DNA from: Lytechinus variegatus
Lineage: Eukaryota; Echinodermata; Echinoidea; Temnopleuroida; Toxopneustidae
Length of the DNA: 64,000 bases
Reading direction: 5' to 3'
NCBI RefSeq assembly: GCF_018143015.1
Contig: NC_054750.1
Coordinates: 6,493,501 to 6,557,500, forward strand
The position numbers and the translations under genes are program-made. Positions 13,201 through 52,600 of the stretch are shown here, in pieces. Every line of letters starts with the position of its first letter. Position 1 is the first letter of the stretch. Under the pieces are notes generated by a model, which was not told where the DNA came from, did no database searches, and saw only the letters and a program-made list of their open reading frames with translations.

Positions 13201-16200
13201 AAAATATAAATAAGTGCGATTTTCGGCATGACATTGTCTCTCCAGGACAGCGTGTAAGCTTTTTGGAAGAGTGCTTCTTCAAGGTTCAAGGTCTTGTAAA
13301 AAGTCATGTGACGTTGCGATACTACCAGTATACAAATTTCGTCTCAAAAGTTGCGTGATACTTCAAAGAAAAAGTCATAAAAGTTTGCGGCCCTAACTTT
13401 TTGCATTTTGGAAATATTGCGCGAAGCGTCGAGGGGGGCCATCATGCCCCCCCCCACTCCTTTTTTATTTAGGGTTAATACTCAATTTTATAATAATGCC
13501 CAGGGGGGAGGGCCACTTACATTGACGAGTGGATACCATGCGCGGCCAAAAAACACATAAAAAGAAGGCAGTGTATACAGCCACACGCGTGTGTCTTTAC
13601 CATCCAGCCACACGCGTGTGGTTATATCCAGAACACCTATCTGTGGATACCGCCACACGCCGCCAGTAATAACAGTAAAACGCGTATGTAGGTCTGACCG
13701 TCTATATCACGATCAAAATAACCTCATTTCTTCATTAAATTCTTACATTCTAAACCACTCTGATTTCTTTAAATCATTTCAATTTCATTCTCACCGTCTT
13801 CTCTCCTTGCTTTTCTTGTCTTATTACAAAAGGCCGCCTGTTAAATAGCAAATTCTCTTTTTCTACTTGTGTCGATTCTGGCTTCCTTCGCGGCGCGGTG
13901 GCAGACCCATATACAGCGTTAGCGCAGCGCAGTAGTAGACATACACAGTTTGGGTTTACGTTTGGTACGAATTATGAATATTCATAACTTAGTAGTACGT
14001 CTTGGTAGTGCTTGCATGAATATGCATGATTTCATTTTTACGATCTCCTGCTAACGATATCGATAGCCTCAGGAGATGAAATGAAAACGAATACTTAGTA
14101 GATGGATAGACAGATAAAATTTAGATAAACAGGAAACAGAGTGATAGACATATAGATAGATAGATAGATAGAAAGATAGATAGATAGATAGAAAGATAGA
14201 TAGATAGACAGAGACACCGGGGATAGTGGACAGATAGATCTGACAGAAAGACAGAATATATAGGCCTGGCATTAGAATGAAATATGAAGAAAATAAATGA
14301 ATCTATAAGTATTAGATTTATGGGTACCTACATTACTACTAAAACAAATGATTGGATAAATAAATAAATGAAGAAGTAGACCTAGGTAAACTTAGACTTC
14401 TGGTGATGGGAGAGGGTCATAATGTATATATCATAACCACTGGCGTAGCCAGGAATTTTCAACAGGAGGGGGGGGGGGGGGCAAGGAGAATGTAAATTCA
14501 AAATTCCTGGCTACGCCAGTGGTTATGATGTATACATTATGACCCTCTCCCATCACCAGAAGTCTAAGTTTACCTAGGTCTACTTTTTCATTTATTTATT
14601 TATTTATCCAATCATTTGTTTTAGTAGTAATGTAGGTACTTATAAATCTAATACTTATAGATTCATTTATTTTCTTCATATTTCATTCTAATGCCAGGCC
14701 TATATATTCTGTCTTTCTGTCAGATCTATCTGTCCACTATCCCCGGTGTCTCTGTCTATCTATCTATCTTTCTATCTATCTATCTTTCTATCTATCTATC
14801 TATCTATATGTCTATCACTCTCTGTTTCCTGTTTATCTAAATTTTATCTGTCTATCCATCTACTAAGTATTCGTTTTCATTTCATCTCCTGAGGCTATCG
14901 ATATCGTTAGCAGGAGATCGTAAAAATGAAATCATGCATATCTATGCAAGCACTACCAAGACGTACTACTAAGTTATGAATATTCATAATTCGTACCAAA
15001 CGTAAACCCAAACTGTGTATGTCAACTACTGCGCTGCGCTAACGCTGTATGGGTCTGCCACCGCGAAGGAAGCCAGAATCGACACAAGTAGAAAAAGAGA
15101 ATTTGCTATTTAACAGGCGGCCTTTTGTAACAAGACAAGAAAAGCAAGGAGAGAAGACGGTGAGAATGAAATTGAAACGATTTAAAGAAATCAGAGTGGT
15201 TTAGAATGTAAGAATTTAATGAAGAAATGAAGTTATTTTGATCGTGATATAGACGGTCAGACCTACATACGCGTTTTACTGTTATTACTGGCGGTGTGTG
15301 GCGGTATCCACAGATAGGTGTTCTGGATATAACCACACGCGTGTGGCTGGATGGTAAAGACACACGCGTGTGGCTGTATACACTGCCAATAAAAAGAATG
15401 TCTTTATCAAGATAGGGCACGTTACATACGTAACATGATAAGGGTGTCAAAAACACAAAAATAATGAAAAAAGGGTGTATCTATTTCGCTAGGAAAGCTA
15501 CGTGTTTAGGGTCGAATTTGCGGGATGATAAAACAAAATTAAAATGTTTTAAAAAGGATGTCCCTTTTCCCCCAACACTACATGTTTAGAGTCCAATTTG
15601 CACGAGGTGTAGGTGGCGCCGTATACTAAACCAAATGGTGTGTAAAGGTAAAACAGACGACCGACGGACCCGTGAAATAAAATATCGCTGTACTTGTTTA
15701 GGGGTTCATTTCTGGGGAATACTTGCCAAGAGTATCGCTTTATTTCCAATACTTGTTAAGGGTAGGGTTTCAGACGCTAATACTTGATAAGGGGTGCATT
15801 TTCCGAATATGAAAATACGTGTTTAGGGTGCTTTTCGAGACCCCATGGTCGCGCATGGTATCCACTCGTCAATGGAAGTGCCCCCCCCCGGGTAATAATG
15901 TCATAATAAAAATAGTCTCTAAGAAATTTTACAGAGATGCAGATCTAATAACTGAACATAAAATTATCAAACATGTCAGTTAGCCAAATTTTTTATACCT
16001 GAATTCTTCATATTAATTCTTCACTTAAATTCTTCCTCCTCCACCACCTCCATGACGTATGTATGACCTCCATCTTCTCCGCCTTCTCCTTCCCATTTTT
16101 CTTCTTCATCATATCATAACTAAGTTCATGTTCTTCTTCTTTTCCTTCTTCTCCTTCAAGAAATTGTGGGCTTTATCAATATCATATTCATTTCGAGAAG

Positions 16201-31500: not shown

Positions 31501-33588
31501 CAATCTTATTGATCAATACACAGAAGTGCGCGTCCTTGCATGATCTGACCAATGCAGTCATGCCTTTAATACCACGCGCAGCTAGGCATTGAAGTGCGAT
31601 TCTAAGTCATACTTCAATCTTTGTGAAACACCCCCCTGGTCACCCAGTGCAGCAATGATCTTAAACTTTAATCACTTCACCCATGTTGAACTTTGACCCC
31701 TCAGCGGATACATTCAAGCAGACTTTTACAACCCTAAAGGACATCCAGCCCGACGTCCTGTACCCATCCCTCAACTTCAGCGCCTTCAATGCCAGCGTGG
31801 AGCCTCCAGGCGACCTTATACCATCAGGGGTCAAGACTCTCTTCTTGTCTATCAATCGCTATGAAAGGAAGAAGAACCTTGTTCTGGCAATAGAGGCTAT
31901 GGGTAAGTATTACGGTCTATATTAACTCTGTCTACAACAGGGGCTGCAGAACCAGTCCCCCCCCCCCACCAATTTTTCCAAAACTGTGTCAAAAAAAGAC
32001 CATCTGATTGTGATTATTTGCATGGTCAGCCCCCGTTCCACTTTCGGCTCAGCCCCCCCCCCCACTTTCAAAACCATTATGCAACCCCTGTACAAGCAGT
32101 TGGTCTCCTCAGATAGTCTATTACCACATGGTCTAAATCCATTTGGTCTAATTGGCATTAGGTCTACAGTACACTTAATCTCATATCCATTTACCCAATT
32201 AGCCTATTTAGTCAAATACCCAGTTGGTCTAATTTCCACTTTTTCTACTTATTTTTTTTCTTTGTCAAACAAAAATTTGGTTTATAAACAATTCATGTGA
32301 CCATATGGACCAAATGGTGTTAGACCAAGTGGGTATCATTGAATGAAGTGTGTACAGCCTAAATACAAATAAGACAAAATGGTAAATGGACTAAATGGCA
32401 TTAGACCAAATGGTTAGCAAACTGGTTGAAGACAAACTAGGATTAGACCATGTGAGATAAGACAAAATGGAAAGTAGACCAAGTGGGTGTAGAACAATCA
32501 GCAATGTAGCAGTGATATTTTTAGTTATGGTTGATTTTCTGCTAGTATATAATGAAACTGATGTGTCTTTTTACACTGCCAAGTACATGTATCATTGTGT
32601 ATGTGTCTAAACTGTGGATCAATTGGGAAACTAAAGGTTGTAATTTTAGAGCTTGCTTATGCCAGAAATGTGTGCATATTAATTATTAACATATCATGGT
32701 GTATGATGCATTTATTTTGCAATTAATGAAGATTTTTTTTTAGTGTAGAACATTTAAAGAGAATTCAAGAAAATTTTAACAAGTGGATTTTATTTTGTTC
32801 CCAAAGATGCAGGATAACCAGGGTTATCATCATCCACTGATGATTTCAGTGAAATACTTTGATTGGTGAAGCACTGTTACAATAGACTCATTGATCACTG
32901 CCTTCATGAAACAATACACCTGTTCCAGTTCCAAGGGTTAAAATCCTGGAAAATACCCCATTTTCAAATGATTTTATGGTGAACAGTTAAAGATACATGA
33001 TATTCTGAAATGTCGAATTTATATATAAATACCGAGATTTGTACCTTTTCAGATATATGTTCTCTTGCACAATTAGGTGAATTGAAATCCAAACTCTCGG
33101 AGGACGAATGGGAGAATGTACACCTTGTGATGGCAGGAGGCTACGATGACCGCGTTACCGAAAACCGGGAGCACTACGAAGAGCTTGTACAACGTGCCGA
33201 GGAACACAAGCTGGCCGATCACGTGACCTTCATCCGTTCCTTCACCGATGCGCAGAAACTCACACTCCTTGATAGCTGCACGTGTCTTCTCTATACCCCA
33301 TCAAATGAACATTTTGGTATCGTCCCTATAGAGGCCATGTACATGTACCGACCAGTCATTGCGGTGAATAGTGGGGGACCACTGGAAACCATCGCTCATA
33401 AACAGACAGGGTTCCTCTGTGAGCCATCGGCAGCCAGCTTTGCCCCAGCAATGGAGCGTTTTGTGCGGGAGCCAGATCTAAAGAACAGACTAGGAAAAGC
33501 AGGGAGGGATAGAGTTATTAATAATTTCTCTTTTAGAGCATTTGGGAATAAGTTAGAGAAGTTGGTTAAAAGGGTTCACAGATTGTAG
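28586..33588 (+). CDS. ALG2: ALG2 alpha-1,3/1,6-mannosyltransferase, complete
   Basis: ALG2 adds the second and third mannoses (alpha-1,3 then alpha-1,6) to the dolichol-linked oligosaccharide on the cytosolic face of the ER, early in N-glycan assembly. The five exons are 28586-28753, 29635-29817, 30290-30434, 31705-31902 and 33077-33588, all GT-AG with matching phases. They give 401 residues (human ALG2 is 416). The N-terminus [20 protein letters not shown] is the family's first glycine-rich loop. [34 protein letters not shown] and AGGYDDRV follow. The GT4 motif EHFGIVPIE supplies the E-x7-E pair (Glu309, Glu317), and NSGGPLETI closes the donor site. The hydrophobic stretch in exon 2 ([11 protein letters not shown]) is the usual ER membrane segment. 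Confidence 0.97.
31031..31192. repeat. TTTCATAAAG-type hairpin repeat in ALG2 intron 3
   Basis: GTGTTTCATAAAGCTGTTTG is mirrored by AAGAACAGCTTTATGAAACG; inside, GACTGGTGATCCTTTCTTG pairs with AAGAAAGTATCACCAGTCGT. The whole element can fold into one long hairpin. It is the same group as 35841-36013. Confidence 0.75.
31430..31637. repeat. TTTCACAAAG-type hairpin repeat in ALG2 intron 3
   Basis: GGGGGTGTTTCACAAAGATT at the left is inverted at the right as AATCTTTGTGAAACACCCCC, with AGTATGACTTGGAGTC paired to CTAAGTCATACTT. It begins about 240 bp after the previous hairpin and lies about 70 bp before ALG2 exon 4. Confidence 0.7.
31938..32090. mobile_element. Short C-rich MITE in ALG2 intron 4
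   Basis: CAGGGGCTGCAGAACC at the left and the inverse of CAGGGGTTGCATAATGG at the right, flanked on both sides by TACAA. The ends look hAT-like, but the full 8-bp duplication is not preserved. Two poly-C runs lie inside. Confidence 0.5.
32100..32520. repeat. Inverted array of a TTTGGTCTAAT minisatellite
   Basis: The left half repeats variants of CATTTGGTCTAATTGGCATT roughly every 20 bp. The right half (from about 32305) repeats the reverse complement (AATGGTGTTAGACCAAGTGG, ATTAGACCAAATGG and so on). The whole therefore forms two arms of short tandem repeats facing each other around an AT-rich centre. Confidence 0.65.
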
Positions 33589-43668: not shown

Positions 43669-46600
43669 TCATTTCTTGGAGGCGGAGTCCAGTTTTGCTT
43701 TCTTGGCCCAGCTGGGTCCCCCCTCCTCCTCCTCTTCTTCTTCATCTGATTCATGGAATATGGGGTTGGGCTGAGTACTGTAAAAAAAAATAAAAAAAAA
43801 AATTCGAAGTTTGATAAAGCAGTACAGTGCATTTGTGTATTTATGTGAAATTTTAAACTAAGATGGAGTTCTCCATTTTCATCTCCTAGAGACCCAGACT
43901 ATAGATTACACATGTAACTTGAATCCTGGAATAGACTCAAGTCCTAGACTACTGAGTGTGTATACAAGTCCTGCATCCAAGTCCCAAGTCCAGGGGACCG
44001 TTCTATGAAAGTTGTCTTTCTCCGACAGTAACCATAGTAACAGTAAGAGACCATTGTCTCTCAGCCGATCAAAACCAAGGATTTCACTAAAATAGTCAGC
44101 ACTGACAATTTAGTCAGTGCTGACAACTTTCATGAAACATCCACCTGGACTTGCATTTATGGGTCTGATTGCATGACCGAGCCCAGACTCAAGCCCAACT
44201 CTTACTGAACGGACTCCCATCTCCTTCACGTACTCATGCCATCACATGACATCTACGAACCATTAGAAACCCATATTGAATATCACTCACTGTTTGTAGG
44301 CTGGCGCAATCCACAAAGGATTCTCCTCCGCATCCTTGGCATGTCTCAAGATGGCGTCCCGAGCACTGATGTTAGGATCGACCTTCTTCGTGAGGGCGAT
44401 ATTGATGGCAACGTAGCGTGACAGGGTGCTACCTCCAGCCGCGATTCGACCTCCTTGACCTGACGAGGGTTAAAAATAAGAGAAATATTGTAGACCGTTC
44501 AACAAACCTGAATCAATCTATAAAGCTGTCCCAAAACTTACCCACAACTTTACAACTGGAACATGTTCTTATTTATAATTCGGCTAGAAATGGATATATA
44601 ATTTAGGCAAGAACAGATCACCGGTTGTGTGTAGTATTTGTAACTTATAAACACCTTCATGAAATACCACCCATTATCTGTGGCATTTCGTTTGACTACA
44701 ATTCCTAGGGCCAATCTTACAAACCATAGGGTTATAAAATGCATGTTTGTTCAAAATATTTTCTAGATATGAATGCATATTCATAAAATCTTTGATTTCT
44801 TGACAAATTGGTGTGTTCTCCTTTGTTTACAAAGGACATTTTGCAAATTTCCTGTAGAAAAAATTGACACTGATGGATTTCCATAGAGTTACGATTGATT
44901 GGATCAATCATAACTCTTTGTAAGACAGGGCCCTGAAGTTCAATAAGTTTTAAATCCTAACATAAGTGTGATACATGTCAATTACAGATTCGTGTAGACA
45001 GCACCTAAAATGTCTTAATCATCACTTTCCTATTCACATGCTAATATGCTACAGTGTACACAGAAAACTGAGTCCGACAGCCCAGGAGGTTTATTCAACC
45101 GAAAGCCGGACAAGCAAATGACCCCATAGCTGGATGGCATGGACCTTGAAGTTTACAAAAATGCATTGCTGCCGGGTTCTATGCGTGGTCTTCCCTCCGA
45201 AATGACGTAATATATGACGTCACTACAAAATGGCCCTATTTCACCATTTTTCAGACATTGTACACATATCAAGAAGTCAAGGGAGAATATCTCAGCCAAA
45301 TCATGCTTGTTTTGTATGAAACTTGCACAATGTATTGTTCGAGTAGTGCACAAGAGATATGCAAAATTTCACGAACAGAAATTATTGTTTACATATGCAA
45401 ATTACGTAATGAAATTTGCATATCATTAGTTTTGGAGATTTCTCGCATAAAAAATTGTCAAAAATCGATTTAGAAATTTATTTTCTTTTGTAGTGTACTT
45501 TATTTGATATTTTTTCTCTCAAGCATAATATCATTGTCTTTATCTATATCTCTACTTTAAGAAAATATATAACAGTAATTGAAAAAGACATTATAGACTG
45601 TGATTTCAGCCCCCTTTCCAATATGGTGCGCACGTAGAAATTGTGCGTTTTTGGCCTATTTTCACCATATGGCTGAGGTGTGCGAACGATATGCCTACTT
45701 TATTGATGTTTCCTGCATTTTGCATGATATTAAATCTTCCAAACAACATATTTTCTTATTCATTATGTCTCTGGTGATCAATCAATGATTTCAGCAAAAA
45801 TTGATTGCCCACTGGGCACTCTATAGGCTACGTTTTCAGCCTAGTTTTCAACAACGAACCTATACAATGTAAGACTGCATCGTTGTAGTCGAGTCGGATA
45901 AGAGGTTCCTGTACATGTGTACCATCAAAATATTTTTCACTCAATTTTTCAATCAACGTTTTGGTATTTGTCTAAACTGTCTCGTTAATGAATCTTGATG
46001 TTCCCTTCCCAAAATCGTGTCCAACGGGGTTCAAAATTGATATCTTTGGCGGCCCTCTTGGACTTTTTAAAAATGAAAATATATTATTTTAATATTTTAT
46101 TGCACAGAGTCAGACAATGGGACAATCTTTTAATCAATACGCATTTCTCTATGATTGGGATAGTAGAAATCGATTTAATTCGTTTCTGATGATATATTTT
46201 GAAATAAAATTTATCCCGAAATGGGCATGATTTTGGTCAAAAATTTGCATGTGCATTGATATCTATCTGTTCAATCCTTAACATCAACAACTATTTCAAA
46301 ATATCAGCATTCGACACGAAAGAGGATATAATATACCGATAATACTGTAACGCTTCATGACAATATGTATGTCTTTATTTGCTTAGTTAAAGGGCAAATA
46401 CCATTATTACCCATTTATTGGAAAATATGCCACTTTGGAGCCCATATTAAGGCAAAAAACGTTTCTGATATGGAATAAAGCCACTTTCATTCTTTTTAAA
46501 CTACATGGAGATAAGAAGGGTAGAGTTTCCTCTATCTGCTACTAGCATACTGAAGCATACCCCTTCAGGGAGCGTCGAAATCACCCACCCTTTTTCATAT

Positions 46601-49600
46601 TTTACCTATTTGTGGGAAAATATGCTTTTTCAAGCCCCATTGAGGCAAAAAGTGTTGCTGCTATGTAGTACGGCCACTTTCATTGTTTTAAACTATGTGG
46701 AGACAAGAGTAGAGTTTTTTCTATCTGCTACAAAAAAAGGTGTGCTGTTACAGCAAAGCCTACCCCCTCTGAGGACTGCTAAAGTTACCCGATAATTATA
46801 CGTATTTTGCCCATTAATGGGAAAATATGCTATTTTCGAGCCCCCATTTGGGCAAAAAGTGCTTCTGCTATTTAGTAAAACCACGTTTATTATTTTCAAA
46901 CTATATGGAGACGAAAGAGTAGAGTTTCTTCTATCTGCTACATATAAAGAGGTGTTGGCATATTGGAACATACCCCCTTAGGGGGTCTCCGAAATCACTT
47001 ACCCTTTTTCCATATTTTACCTATTTATGGGAAAATATGCAATTTTCGAGCCCCCATTGAGGCAAAAGTGTTTCTGCTATGTAGTAAGGCCACCTTTATT
47101 TTTTTCAAACTATATGGAGACGAAAGAGTAGACTTTCTTCTATCTGCTACATATAAAGAAGTGCTGGTACAGTAAAGCCTACCACCTTTGGGAACTGCCA
47201 AAGTTACCCGCCCCTTTTACGTAATTTGCAAATTCATGGGAAAATGTGCTATTTTCGAGCCCCCATTGAGGCAAAGGTGTTTCTGCTATGTAGTAAAACT
47301 ACTCTTATTGCTTTTAAACTATATGGAGACGAAAGAGTAGAGTTTCTTCTATCTGCTACATATAAAGAAGTGCTGGTACCATAAAGCCTACCCCCTTTGG
47401 GAACTGCCAAAGTTACCCGCCCCTTTTACGTAATTTGCAAAATCATGGGAAAATATGCTATTTTCGAGCCCCCATTGAGGCAAAAGGTGTTTCTGCTATG
47501 TGGTAAAACTACTCTTATTGCTTTTAAACTATATGGAGACGAAAGAGTAGAGTTTCCTCTATCTGCTACATATAAAGAGGTGTTGGCATATTGGAACATA
47601 CCCCCCTTGGGTGGTCGCCAAATTCAACTACCCTATTTCATATTTTAACTATTTATGGGAAAATATGCTATTTTCGAGCCCCCATTGAGGCAAAAGGTGT
47701 TTCTGCTATGTAGTAAAACTACTCTTATTGCTTTTAAACTATATGGAGACAAAAGAGTAGAGTTTCTTCTATCTGCTACATATAAAGAAGTGCTGGTACC
47801 ATAAAGCCTACCCCCTTTAGGAACTGCCAAAGTTACCCGCCCCTTTTACGTAATTTGCAAAATCATGGGAAAATGTGCTATTTTCGAGCCCCCATTGAGG
47901 CAAAAGGTGTTTCTGCTATGTAGTAAAACTACTCTTATTGCTTTTAAACTATATGGAGACGAAAGAGTAGAGTTTCCTCTATCTGCTGCATATAAAGAGG
48001 TGTTGGCATATTGGAACATACCCCCCTTATGGGGTCGCCAAAATCACCTACCCTTTTTCATATTTTAATTATTTATGGAAAAATATGCTATTTTCGAGCC
48101 CCCATTGAGGCAAAAGGTGTTTCTGCTATGTAGTAAAACTACTCTTATTGCTTTTAAACTATATGGAGACAAAAGAGTAGAGTTTCCTCTATCTGCTACA
48201 TATAAAGAGGTGTTGGCATATTGGAACATACTCCCCTTGGGGGGTCGCCAAATTCACCTAACCTTTTTCCATATTTACCTATTTATGGGAAAATATGCTA
48301 TTTTCGAGCCCCCATTGAGGCAAAAGGTGTTTCTGCTATGTAGTAAAACTACTCTTATTGCTTTTAAACTATATGGAGACGAAAGAGTAGAGTTTCCTCT
48401 ATCTGCTACATATAAAGAGGTGCTGGTACCATAAAGCCTACTCCCTTTTGGAACTGCTAAAGTTACCCGCCCCTTTTACGTAATTTGCAAAATCATGGGA
48501 AAATGTGCTATTTTCGAGCCCCCATTGAGGCAAAAGGTGTTTCTGCTATATAGTAAAACTACTCTTATTGCTTTTAAACTATATGGAGACGAAAGAGTAG
48601 AGTTTCCTCTATCTGCTGCATATAAAGAGGTGTTGGCATATTGGAACATACCCCCCTTATGGGGTCGCCGAAATCACCTACCCTTTTTCCATACTTTACC
48701 TGTTTATGGGAAAATGTGCTATTTTCGAGCCCCCATTCAGGCAAAAAGCGTTTCTGCTATATGGTGAAGCCAGTTTCATTCTTTTGAAACTACATGGAAT
48801 TAAAGGAGTAGACTTTCTTCAATCTGCTGCTAATAAGTGGTTGCACAGCAAAGTCTATCCCCTCCGGGGGTTCCGAAAGTCACCCACCCCTTTTCCATAT
48901 TTTTTCCAATATGGGGAAAATCTGCCAATCTTGGAGCCTCTGAAGAAGGTAGCAGTCGATGTACCGCACTTTTTTTTTTACATGTAGCTGATAGATAAAA
49001 ATGCCTCTTCTTTTATTTCAAAGTGGTTTCCAAAATCAAAGCTAGCTTTACTATATAGCAGAAATGCCCTTTTGTCTGAATGGGGGCTCAAACATTGCAT
49101 TTTTTTACAATAAAGAATGAAAATAGACATATGTAACTGATAAAGAAGATCCTACTTTGTCATCTTTATGTGGTTACAAAACAAAAACAAGGGCTTTACC
49201 GCAAGGCAGAAACACTGTTTGCCTCAAAATGACTAATTTTCCGAGAAACTGGCAAGATACGAAAAAAGATTGGGTGACTTTGGCAGCCCCCTGAGGGTTA
49301 GGCTTTGCTATGCCCCAATTTCTTTATATGTAGCTGATAGAGAAAAGTGATTTAAAGGAAAAAATTACATACTCAAAACAAAATGTTACCACAATAGGGG
49401 CTCCGAAAAGCACGATATCATAATAGTCAAGGTATGGATAATGGTATGGTACTGTATGTAACATTTTACTGGTTCTTGTGGGACTATGCTTTAAGGTGCC
49501 CGAGAGTAATTGCATGCAAAATGAAAATGCAGAGCAATGCCTCGAACTTCTATCTTTTTCAAGAGATTTAATTATCATAAAAATTGCTTTGTGTAGAAAA

Positions 49601-52600
49601 TGCCTTTTACCCTCATACACATGATACAAGTAATACATACCTTTCTATCGATCGCTAAGTACGTTATTTTCTGCATGTTAGGCACATCAACAAAGGCGAT
49701 CGGATGCAAGATGAAACAGATAGATGTCAATGCACTTGAACATTTTGGTTCAAAATTTTTGATGAATTCTTTTTTTAATATATTAACCGGACTATTCAGA
49801 AAACAATTTCAACCGATTTCTACTATCCAAATCCTAGTGAAATGCGTATTGATTTAAAATTTCCCATTGTCAGACTTTGTGCAATAAAATATGAAAATAA
49901 TTGATTTTTATTAAAAATGTCCAAGAGGGCCGCCAAAGATATCAATTTTGAACTCCGTTGGACACGATTTTGGGAAGGGAACATCAAGATTCATTAACTA
50001 GACACTTTAGGCAAATACCAAAACATTGAGTGAAAAATGTTTTGATGGTACATAGAAACCCCCTTATCCGACTGACTAGAACGATGCAGTCATACATGGT
50101 ATAGATTCGTTGTTGAAAATTAGGCTGAAAACGTAGCCTATAGACTACCCAGTGGGCAATCAATTTTTGCTGAAATCATTGATTGATCACCAGAGACATA
50201 ATGAAGAAGAAAATATGTTGTTTGGAAGATTTAATATCATGCAAAATGCAGGAAACATCAATAAAGTAGGCATATCGTTCGCACACCTCAGCCATATTAT
50301 GGTGAAAATAGGCCAAAAACGCATGATTTCTACGTGCGGACCATATTGGAAAAGGGGCTGAAATCACAGTATATAATGCCTTTTTCAATTACTGTTATAT
50401 ATTTTCTTAAAGTAGAGATATAGATAAAGACAATGATATTATGCTTGAGAGACAAAATATCAAATAAAGTACACTACAAAAGAAAATAAATTTCTAAATT
50501 GATTTTTGACAATTTTTTATGCGAGAAATCTCCAAAACTAATGATATGCAAATTTCATTACGTAATTTGCATATGTAAACAATAATTTCTGTTCGTGAAA
50601 TTTTGCATATCTCTTGTGCACTACTCGAACAATACATTGTAAAAGTTTCATACAAAACAAGCATGATTTGACTGAGATATTCTCCCTTGACTTCATGCTA
50701 TGTGTACAATGTCTGAAAAATGGTGAAATAGGGCCATTTTGTAGTGACGTCATATATTACGTCATTTCGGAGGGAAGACCACGCATAGAACCCGGCAGCA
50801 ATGCATTTTTGTAAACTTCAAGGTCCATGCCATCCAGCTATGGGGTCATTTGCTTGTCCGGCTTTCGGTTGAATAAACCTCCTGGGCTGCCGGACTAAAC
50901 TGAGTTATATTTGTTTGTTTGCTTTTATTTCTGCATTCAAAATAATTCATTTCAAAATGTAATATGTGTTTACATACACAATAACGCACAATGTGATTTA
51001 TAATTAACTGCAAAAGGTATTTCATTTTCATGGTGCAAGCTCCCTACCAACAAACCGCCAACTAGATTGATCATGATAATTTAAACAACAGCTTCATCGA
51101 ATAGCTGGCAGAAAGGTGGTAGATGTACATATGCTCTAATATTCAATACATGTGTAGCTGGTATAAGGGTACTGGCTCAAGCATGTGCTAGGTCATATGT
51201 ACATGTACAGTGCCAGCAAGGAAAAGTCCATCCTACAAATATTCTTATTTGAATCAATAGAAGAAAATCAAACAAGCAAAGTGGTGAAAATCTAATCAAG
51301 ACGCTGGTGACATTTTACAATTTTGCATATTTTTCACAAAATAGTTATATGCAACACTCAGAAATATGCAAATGAGAGTCAATAGTATCCCTCTCTCACC
51401 TTTCCTTTCTTTTTCATTGTTCATATTATACAATATTTCAGTTTTTACAGATTTTACAATAATGCCAAACTGACTGAACCATAAAATGTTGAAACAAATT
51501 ATGGTAAATTGCACATTTAGGGATGAATTAAACTGTTCTTCAGAAGACGTGGAGAAGATTTTTTTTTTATTTCATATAATAAAATACAAAAGGAATAGTA
51601 AGTGGGTGATGTCATCAGCCCCCTCATTTGCATACTGACCAGGATGTGCATATAACTGTTTTGTGAAATTAAACTTAAATGTCATAATTTTCTCATTTTA
51701 AATCCAATTACTATAAGAGTTATGCTTGTTGGATTTTTTTTTCTCATTTAATTAAAATCATATTTTTTTATTCGGTGGACTTATCCTTTAATGACATTTT
51801 CCCTGACCTACAGGAATGGAAATTTATGTAGGCATAAATACTACAGCCCTTCTGCCACCAGGCAGAGACATCCCCTATGACTTTATGACTTTCCAGGACA
51901 TACCTTGTTTGATGGGTAGATCAGGTTTCCTTGATTTCACAGGATCTTGCCTGTCTTTCATCTGTTTCTTGTAAGCCATAATCTCCTGAGGCTCCTCCCT
52001 GTTACGATGTCTCCCTCTCCTTGACATGACAGCTGAAGAGAGATATAAGAATGATAATATCAATTAGAACATCTGTTTCTTATAAGCCATGATTTCCTGA
52101 GGCTTTTCCCTGTTACGTCTCCCTCTCCTCGACATGACAGCTACAGGGAGAATAACTGTTTAAATCAGAACAGAACCCTGTTGTAAAAAAAAGTTTTCCC
52201 ATTGGGTTTGTACTTGTGGTACGGTAAGATCAAAGCTTGTACCGTCTTGAATTCTGTGCGACTGAATCGTCGATATCCATACGCTGGATTGGAGCAGTTT
52301 AAGCTGCTGCATGCCTGACCTTGGAGCAAAGGAAAAGTACTGGAAGTACACAAATAACAGTATATGTAGGGCCATACCATTGCATAAGGTACTCCACATG
52401 TAATGTATGGACACGCACACGTAATAACAAATTGTGGAACTCTGTGTGCCTTTTGACTTTTTTCATTACTTTTTTTAACCAAAACGAGCACGTTGTAGCT
52501 CTATCCACCAACTGATATCAATGAATTGAACAGGCTGGGATCTAACAAACATATTTCTTATGTCAATTGGACTCAAACAGTGGAACACCATCGTAGATTG

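What the first reader, a model, noticed from the sequence alone, without database searches (positions are those of the whole stretch)
45071..50896. Long-arm element carrying a satellite array between perfect 6-bp target duplications
Directly visible: AAACTG on both sides, AG...CT termini, arms of about 1.1 kb, and a tandem array as the only cargo. Known long-arm classes (Polinton, foldback/Galileo, Mutator-like) differ in duplication length; AG termini with 6 bp are the Polinton pattern, yet no protein-coding part is seen. If correct, this is a non-autonomous derivative in which a satellite replaced the coding core, a possible route by which satellites spread to new sites.
Basis: partly seen in the sequence, partly recalled or inferred. 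Interest (0 to 1): 0.8.

Follow-up and report, generated by a model that had tools for sequence, protein, structure and literature searches.

The report
Sea-urchin-like transposon carrying a satellite array
This is one of over a hundred recent copies of a gene-less, cut-and-paste mobile element that carries a 210-base satellite array inside it; it is not a Polinton, and it is a clear new example of a known way in which satellites spread.

Summary
Window 45071-50896 is a long-armed element (arms about 1.2 kb) without a recognised coding part, with a 210-bp array (46588-48828) and AAACTG on both sides. The same 870-Mb genome has 144 + 143 ends of this family. In 94 end pairs, 78 measure 4.0-8.3 kb, in steps of about 210 bp. 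The Polinton reading fails. Of 53 copies whose two flanks could be compared, 47 show a 3-bp duplication around TAGTCCGG...CCGGACTA; only the window copy shows 6 bp. One copy has two uninterrupted paralogues that confirm a precise 3-bp duplication. None of 49 Polinton-polymerase matches lies inside the 94 pairs. The array travels with the element: two copies at different sites match unit by unit at 98-100%. Array length also changes in place: two duplicates of one insertion differ by 8 units. Degenerate inverted units in the right inner arm suggest that the array grew from inner-arm sequence. No autonomous partner was found, so the superfamily is unresolved. The nearest described case that I found is the Drosophila element Tetris.

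The parts
45071..50896 (.). whole element, AG...CT frame; by the family frame it includes 45070 (G here, T in 147 of 150 ends with printed flanks) and 50897 (A)
45065..45070 (.). left AAACTG (target duplication of this copy; equally readable as 4-bp AACT at 45066-45069 plus an end base T changed to G)
50897..50902 (.). right AAACTG
45071..46271 (+). left arm (terminal inverted repeat), 1201 bp; over the outer ~750 bp left and right arms differ by about 1% or less (mean of 28 copies)
49715..50896 (-). right arm, 1182 bp, 91.1% identical to the left arm
46407..46542 (+). diverged partial unit just before the array (80% to the unit)
46588..48828 (+). 210-bp tandem array, 10.7 copies, two unit types in this copy (order BABAABABBAB)
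48977..49346 (-). degenerate inverted units of the same satellite (65-73% identity, one 26-bp stretch 92%) in the right inner arm

Best explanation
The element is a member of a young, non-autonomous, terminal-inverted-repeat DNA transposon family. Its copies are moved in trans by a transposase encoded elsewhere that makes 3-bp target duplications (the supply in trans is inferred; the 3-bp duplication is shown). The whole unit, arms plus ordered 210-bp array, is copied to new sites (shown for close relatives). The array then grows or shrinks in whole units after insertion, by unequal exchange or slippage (the length change is shown; the mechanism is inferred). The array most likely began as a repeat inside the inner arms that amplified on one side only (inferred from inverted relics on the other side).
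For: There are 144 + 143 ends genome-wide, with 0 for the reversed control. Of 244 listed exact ends (of 245), 188 form 94 convergent pairs; 78 of the 94 measure 4.0-8.3 kb, and these sizes are quantised at about 210 bp (Rayleigh z 18.5 at 210, peak 18.9 at 211-212; 0.1 at 150). A 3-bp duplication is seen in 24 of 28 copies read in full and in 27 of 31 pairs from end flanks; the union after removing 6 overlaps is 47 of 53. Two uninterrupted paralogues of the L025 site, 99.7 and 99.5% identical over 397 bp, carry one CAC. In L029 and L037 (different sites), units of the same position match at 0.98-1.00. L013 and L029 share flanks (98.3 and 99.7% over 300 bp) and outer parts at 99.4-99.6%, but have 19 versus 11 scored units; the extra block is a copy of existing units. 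Of the best-scored array places, 39 of 40 and 38 of 40 lie inside an end pair or within 8 kb of a single end.
Against: No autonomous partner was found. A search for other ends sharing the first 12 bases gave 9 matches, fewer than its control (35). Over the whole family, arm and array distances correlate only weakly (rho 0.09-0.15; from 37 of 1000 to 446 of 2000 permutations reach it), so array order is inherited in close pairs but is reshuffled over longer spans. Six of 53 copies lack an exact 3-bp duplication. No empty site was found for the window copy. Of the 94 pairs, 12 exceed 8.3 kb and 4 are under 4 kb; apart from a partial read of one of them (L033) their interiors were not read.
Confidence: 0.87

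Rival explanations
1. It is a non-autonomous Polinton derivative in which a satellite replaced the coding core.
For: AG...CT ends and a perfect 6-bp duplication in the window copy. Polinton-type polymerase genes are present in the genome (49 DNA_pol_B_2 matches). Polinton duplications are stated as 6 bp in PMC10045372 (passages).
Against: 47 of 53 copies have 3-bp duplications, and the outermost pair is T...A. 0 of 49 polymerase matches lie in the 94 end pairs; the nearest paired end is 157.4 kb away and the nearest single listed end 33.8 kb away, the latter belonging to copy L022, which was read in full.
Confidence: 0.02
2. It is a foldback or Mutator-like element (Tetris, Galileo or the sea-urchin TU kind).
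For: Long arms, a tandem repeat next to the inner arm, inverted relics on the other side, and a repeat length near the ~220 bp of Tetris TIR-220 (PMC4079207). In the AG frame L022 shows a 9-bp duplication.
Against: 3-bp duplications in 47 of 53 copies, against 8-10 bp for Tetris. TRF lists no tandem repeat in the arms of the window copy.
Confidence: 0.06
3. It is mobilised by a transposase of a superfamily with 3-bp duplications, such as PIF/Harbinger, Zator or Academ. This refines the best explanation.
For: The 3-bp duplication. PMC10045372 (passages) gives 3 bp for Zator and 0-4 bp for Harbinger and relatives; Academ at 3-4 bp is recalled.
Against: No transposase was found or, beyond XPG_I, searched for genome-wide. 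The 4 XPG_I matches are all outside the 94 pairs, which speaks mildly against XPG-bearing Academ (XPG content recalled). The duplications (TAT, CAC, AGT, CAA and others) are not restricted to TWA, the Harbinger pattern (recalled).
Confidence: 0.6

Closest known systems
Tetris (Drosophila virilis foldback transposon with TIR-220 repeats), PMC4079207
   Same: Apparently non-autonomous; long inverted repeats with ~220-bp internal tandem repeats of variable number; no apparent coding capacity; allelic copies differing by a whole unit; the repeat seen as building block of a satellite.
   Different: Tetris has 8-10 bp target duplications, repeats placed within its inverted repeats, and kb-size satellite-like arrays. 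Here the duplication is 3 bp, the array is on one side with only relics on the other, there are 287 ends, and among the 40 places scored in each of two searches I saw no long array away from family ends.
MITE-like elements with satellites or tandem repeats (Xenopus Xstir, bivalve BIV160, oyster HindIII; listed in the review PMC6947457, passages)
   Same: A MITE-like element is linked with a tandem repeat or satellite.
   Different: Here the arms are 1.2 kb and most paired elements 4-8 kb, so it is not miniature.
Polinton/Maverick
   Same: AG at the ends in one frame (Polinton end letters recalled); 6-bp duplication in the window copy only.
   Different: 3-bp duplications in the family, no polymerase in the 94 pairs, no coding part seen in the window copy.
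TU elements of the sea urchin Strongylocentrotus (Liebermann 1983; cited in PMC4079207, details recalled)
   Same: Long inverted repeats in an echinoid (host identity here is inferred).
   Different: TU arms have short tandem repeats in the outer domain and 8-bp duplications (recalled); here no tandem repeat was listed in the arms and the duplications are 3 bp.

Membership tests
Polinton/Maverick | 6-bp target site duplications | tested here: not met
   3 bp in 47 of 53 copies; 6 bp in 1 of 53, the window copy
Polinton/Maverick | family B DNA polymerase within elements with these ends | tested here: not met
   0 of 49 PF03175 matches inside any of 94 end pairs
Polinton/Maverick | retroviral-type integrase of Polinton kind in elements with these ends | not tested
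   28 copies were checked for frame length only (longest 206 aa) and ten frames of the window copy against Pfam. Members over 8.3 kb were not scanned, except one long frame of L033, a reverse transcriptase.
Foldback/Tetris kind | long inverted repeats with internal tandem repeats | tested here: met
   1.2-kb arms, array inside them, inverted relics
Foldback/Tetris kind | 8-10 bp target duplications (Mutator-like) | tested here: not met
   3 bp in 47 of 53
PIF/Harbinger | 3-bp target duplication | tested here: met
PIF/Harbinger | TWA target preference (recalled) | tested here: not met
   Duplications include CAC, AGT, CAA, TTG, TGT, ATG and CTG
PIF/Harbinger | Harbinger transposase in an autonomous partner | not tested
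Zator | 3-bp target duplication (PMC10045372) | tested here: met
Zator | Zator transposase in an autonomous partner | not tested
Academ with XPG nuclease (content recalled) | XPG nuclease gene in an element with these ends | tested here: not met
   The 4 XPG_I matches found in the genome are all outside the 94 pairs
IS3EU/GingerRoot | TA..TA ends with 6-bp duplications (PMC10045372) | tested here: not met
   TA..TA ends are present, duplications are 3 bp
MITE | small size (recalled, under about 0.8 kb), no coding, many uniform copies | tested here: not met
   Of 94 pairs, 78 are 4.0-8.3 kb and the smallest is 1320 bp

The most novel reading that the evidence does not exclude
The array is a working part of the element, for instance as extra transposase-binding or pairing sites as suggested for Galileo and Tetris (PMC4079207). 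Selection for transposition would then have kept it (it is in 28 of 28 copies read), and the two arms would be kept alike in their outer 750 bp by conversion, so that the satellite spreads as a functional organ and not as a passenger.
Probability: 0.15. Interest if true: 0.55.

Novelty: new member of a known kind. Interest (0 to 1): 0.32.

Why it matters
The family has 287 ends, and each of the 28 copies read carries an array whose units can be told apart by sequence and order. That makes it a good natural experiment on how satellites are dispersed by a DNA transposon and how arrays change length after landing. It also shows why one perfect duplication at one site should not be used to assign a superfamily.

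Tried and rejected
Autonomous partner: the members of 20.5 kb (C2) and 20.8 kb (C4) looked promising, but both carry the array at a family position (C4; C2), so inserted DNA is the simpler reading; their interiors were not read. L019, with one end only, loses similarity 1.35 kb from its end and continues into sequence whose long matches are nearby on C19, with only short 76-82% matches elsewhere; it is read as a broken copy. L038, upstream of it, holds a Gypsy-type LTR element. L033 holds a nested reverse-transcriptase fragment.

A search for other families sharing the first 12 end bases gave 9 matches against 35 in the control. The joined flanks of the window copy found no empty paralogue: only the two halves themselves and an interspersed repeat in the left half. 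Of the other spanning matches, only L032 against L024 was inspected: 69% identity, compatible with an old empty site but too diverged to count; the script stopped with an error before the rest. Family-wide correlation of arms with arrays was weak or absent in both versions tried. Rfam gave nothing at 44000-52000. Literature: a search for Lytechinus with tandem repeats, inverted repeats and transposable elements gave 3 papers; in the one opened, PMC11457506, the passages shown describe nothing like this. The search for sea urchin + satellite DNA + transposon + TIR + tandem repeats gave only Tetris. Searches meant to find Academ end sequences gave nothing usable; the AcademH paper is not held.

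Rows dropped: L019, L033 and L038 are outside the 28 copies read with both ends (the L033 site is among the 31 end pairs). L013 was left out as a duplicate of the L029 insertion; L011 was left out in half. Counting duplicated insertions once (L013/L029, and C9:19193844/C9:19429845), the duplication figure is 45 of 51. In one search some anchors were missed (for example a 412-bp 'unit' in L010). In one search only 24 of the 49 polymerase places were entered; one search repeats the test with all 49. One of 245 exact ends was not listed.
Full report
WHAT IS THERE. It has no open frame over 128 aa and no Pfam hit above a family cut-off in the ten frames scanned, of 42 frames of 55 aa or more.

THE FAMILY. 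The window lies in an 869.6-Mb assembly of 33 contigs. By size and chromosome number this looks like Lytechinus variegatus; that is recall, not a test. A 30-base end pattern with up to 3 mismatches has 144 forward and 143 reverse matches, and the reversed control has none. An exact 16-base end with flanks gave 75 + 69 + 101 matches, of which 244 places were listed. These form 94 convergent pairs and leave 56 single ends. Of the 94 pairs, 78 measure 4.0-8.3 kb, and their sizes are quantised at about 210 bp (Rayleigh z 18.5 at 210, peak 18.9 at 211-212, 12.7 at 200, 10.3 at 220, 0.1 at 150, 0.7 at 300). The other 16 are four of 1.3-3.1 kb and twelve of 9.1-35.1 kb. So most members differ mainly by whole satellite units.

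TARGET DUPLICATION. In the AG...CT frame few copies have a matching duplication, of mixed length. In a frame one base wider (TAG...CTA) 24 of the 28 copies read in full have an exact 3-bp duplication, and 27 of the 31 pairs for which both end flanks were printed do. The union is 53 copies after removing 6 overlaps: 47 with 3 bp, 6 without. The six are L018 and L024 (none), L022 (7 bp, or 9 in the AG frame), the window copy (6 bp, or 4 in the wider frame with its end T changed to G), C1:26784937 and C8:38175704 (none). The outermost base is T at 147 of the 150 ends with printed flanks. Copy L025 sits in a locally repeated unit. Two uninterrupted units, 99.7 and 99.5% identical over 397 bp, carry the site with a single CAC, which shows a precise 3-bp duplication. 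The 6-bp duplication is therefore an exception of this one copy, not the rule of the family.

NOT A POLINTON. The genome has 49 matches to the Polinton-type polymerase family PF03175, many in long open frames. None lies within any of the 94 end pairs; the nearest paired end is 157.4 kb away, and the nearest single end is 33.8 kb away and belongs to L022, which was read in full. The sibling duplications contradict the 6-bp rule for Polintons (given in PMC10045372, passages). The integrase was not searched genome-wide.

THE ARRAY TRAVELS AND CHANGES. All 28 copies read carry the array. Of the 40 scored places for the first array units, 38 lie inside an end pair or within 8 kb of a single end; for an inner dimer, 39 of 40. 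The tool scores only the best candidates (40 of 658 and 40 of 701), so other free arrays cannot be excluded. L029 and L037, at different sites, have the same 11-unit order, and units of the same position are 0.98-1.00 identical while different positions are mostly 0.71-0.97, apart from near-identical units 5 and 6. L013 and L029 share flanks (98.3 and 99.7% over 300 bp) and outer parts (99.4-99.6%), so they are duplicates of one insertion, by segmental duplication or by an assembly duplicate. L013 has 19 scored units and L029 has 11, the excess being a block copy of existing units. Two further same-flank copies on C9, 236 kb apart, differ in size by exactly 210 bp (5387 and 5597). Against a simple picture, arm and array distances correlate weakly over 26-27 copies (rho 0.09-0.15; from 37 of 1000 to 446 of 2000 permutations reach it). 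My reading is that arrays reshuffle faster than arms record.

HOW IT AROSE. The right inner arm holds degenerate inverted units (48977-49125 and 49129-49346, 65-73% identity over the long stretches, E down to about 1e-16), and a diverged partial unit precedes the array (46407-46542, 80%); the arms themselves show no similarity to the unit at E 1e-3. The simplest history is a longer palindrome with this repeat in both inner arms, amplified on one side. That differs from a satellite replacing a coding core, though neither is proven. Left and right arms of one copy differ by no more than left arms of different copies over the outer 750 bp (about 1%), but by 5-20% further in, where left arms of different copies still differ by only 0.6-2.2%. 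The inner divergence therefore predates the spread, and the outer arms were homogenised or kept alike. The mean left-left difference is 1.2% among the 28 copies, which were chosen from the 40 best matches to the window's end, so the spread is recent in relative terms at least for these.

MECHANISM AND PLACE. Most likely this is a non-autonomous TIR transposon moved in trans by a cut-and-paste transposase with a 3-bp stagger. No autonomous copy was found. PIF/Harbinger, Zator and Academ (3-4 bp, recalled) are candidates; the XPG nuclease matches (4 in the genome) do not co-locate. Tetris of Drosophila virilis (abstract, sections 10 and 19, and passages read) is the closest described case that I found: ~220-bp internal repeats in long inverted repeats, allelic unit-number change and no apparent coding capacity, but 8-10 bp duplications. 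The general link between MITE-like elements and satellites is in print (review PMC6947457, passages). Hence: a new member of a known kind, well documented here, of modest interest.

Noticed in passing
window 44771-44940: The left flank is part of a short interspersed repeat (91-93% to 38 other places of 40 candidates scored, 2772 in the first look) that ends about 130 bp before the element.
   Followed up: partly
window 13567-13762 and 15192-15388: Inverted pair of a repeat that also flanks copy L034 (99.5 and 98.5% identity).
   Followed up: no
G000:C6:24382120-24417184: Two family ends 35 kb apart share the duplication TTA, as if one element had grown to 35 kb; the interior was not read.
   Followed up: no
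L011 (G000:C12:10207598-10213480): The arms are 99.3% identical over 1053 bp and one of them is 7% off the window's right arm, as if one arm had overwritten the other.
   Followed up: partly
G000:C10:18857015, 18867163, 18878887: Three left ends in the same orientation with the same 8-base flank at 10-12 kb spacing, as from a tandem segmental duplication carrying an element end.
   Followed up: no
G000:C1:23871954(+)/26786283(-) and C6:30087376(+)/31332140(-): Ends 1.2-2.9 Mb apart in opposite orientation share the same 8-base flank, as expected for inverted duplication or recombination between copies; AAAGCTTT is itself a palindrome.
   Followed up: no
L038 305-7263: A Gypsy-type LTR retrotransposon: direct repeats of 300 nt at 100% identity and two long stop-to-stop frames (881 and 682 aa) with integrase and reverse transcriptase domains.
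   Followed up: no
window 33001-33588: Open frame with a group 1 glycosyltransferase domain (E 3e-28), probably a host exon.
   Followed up: no
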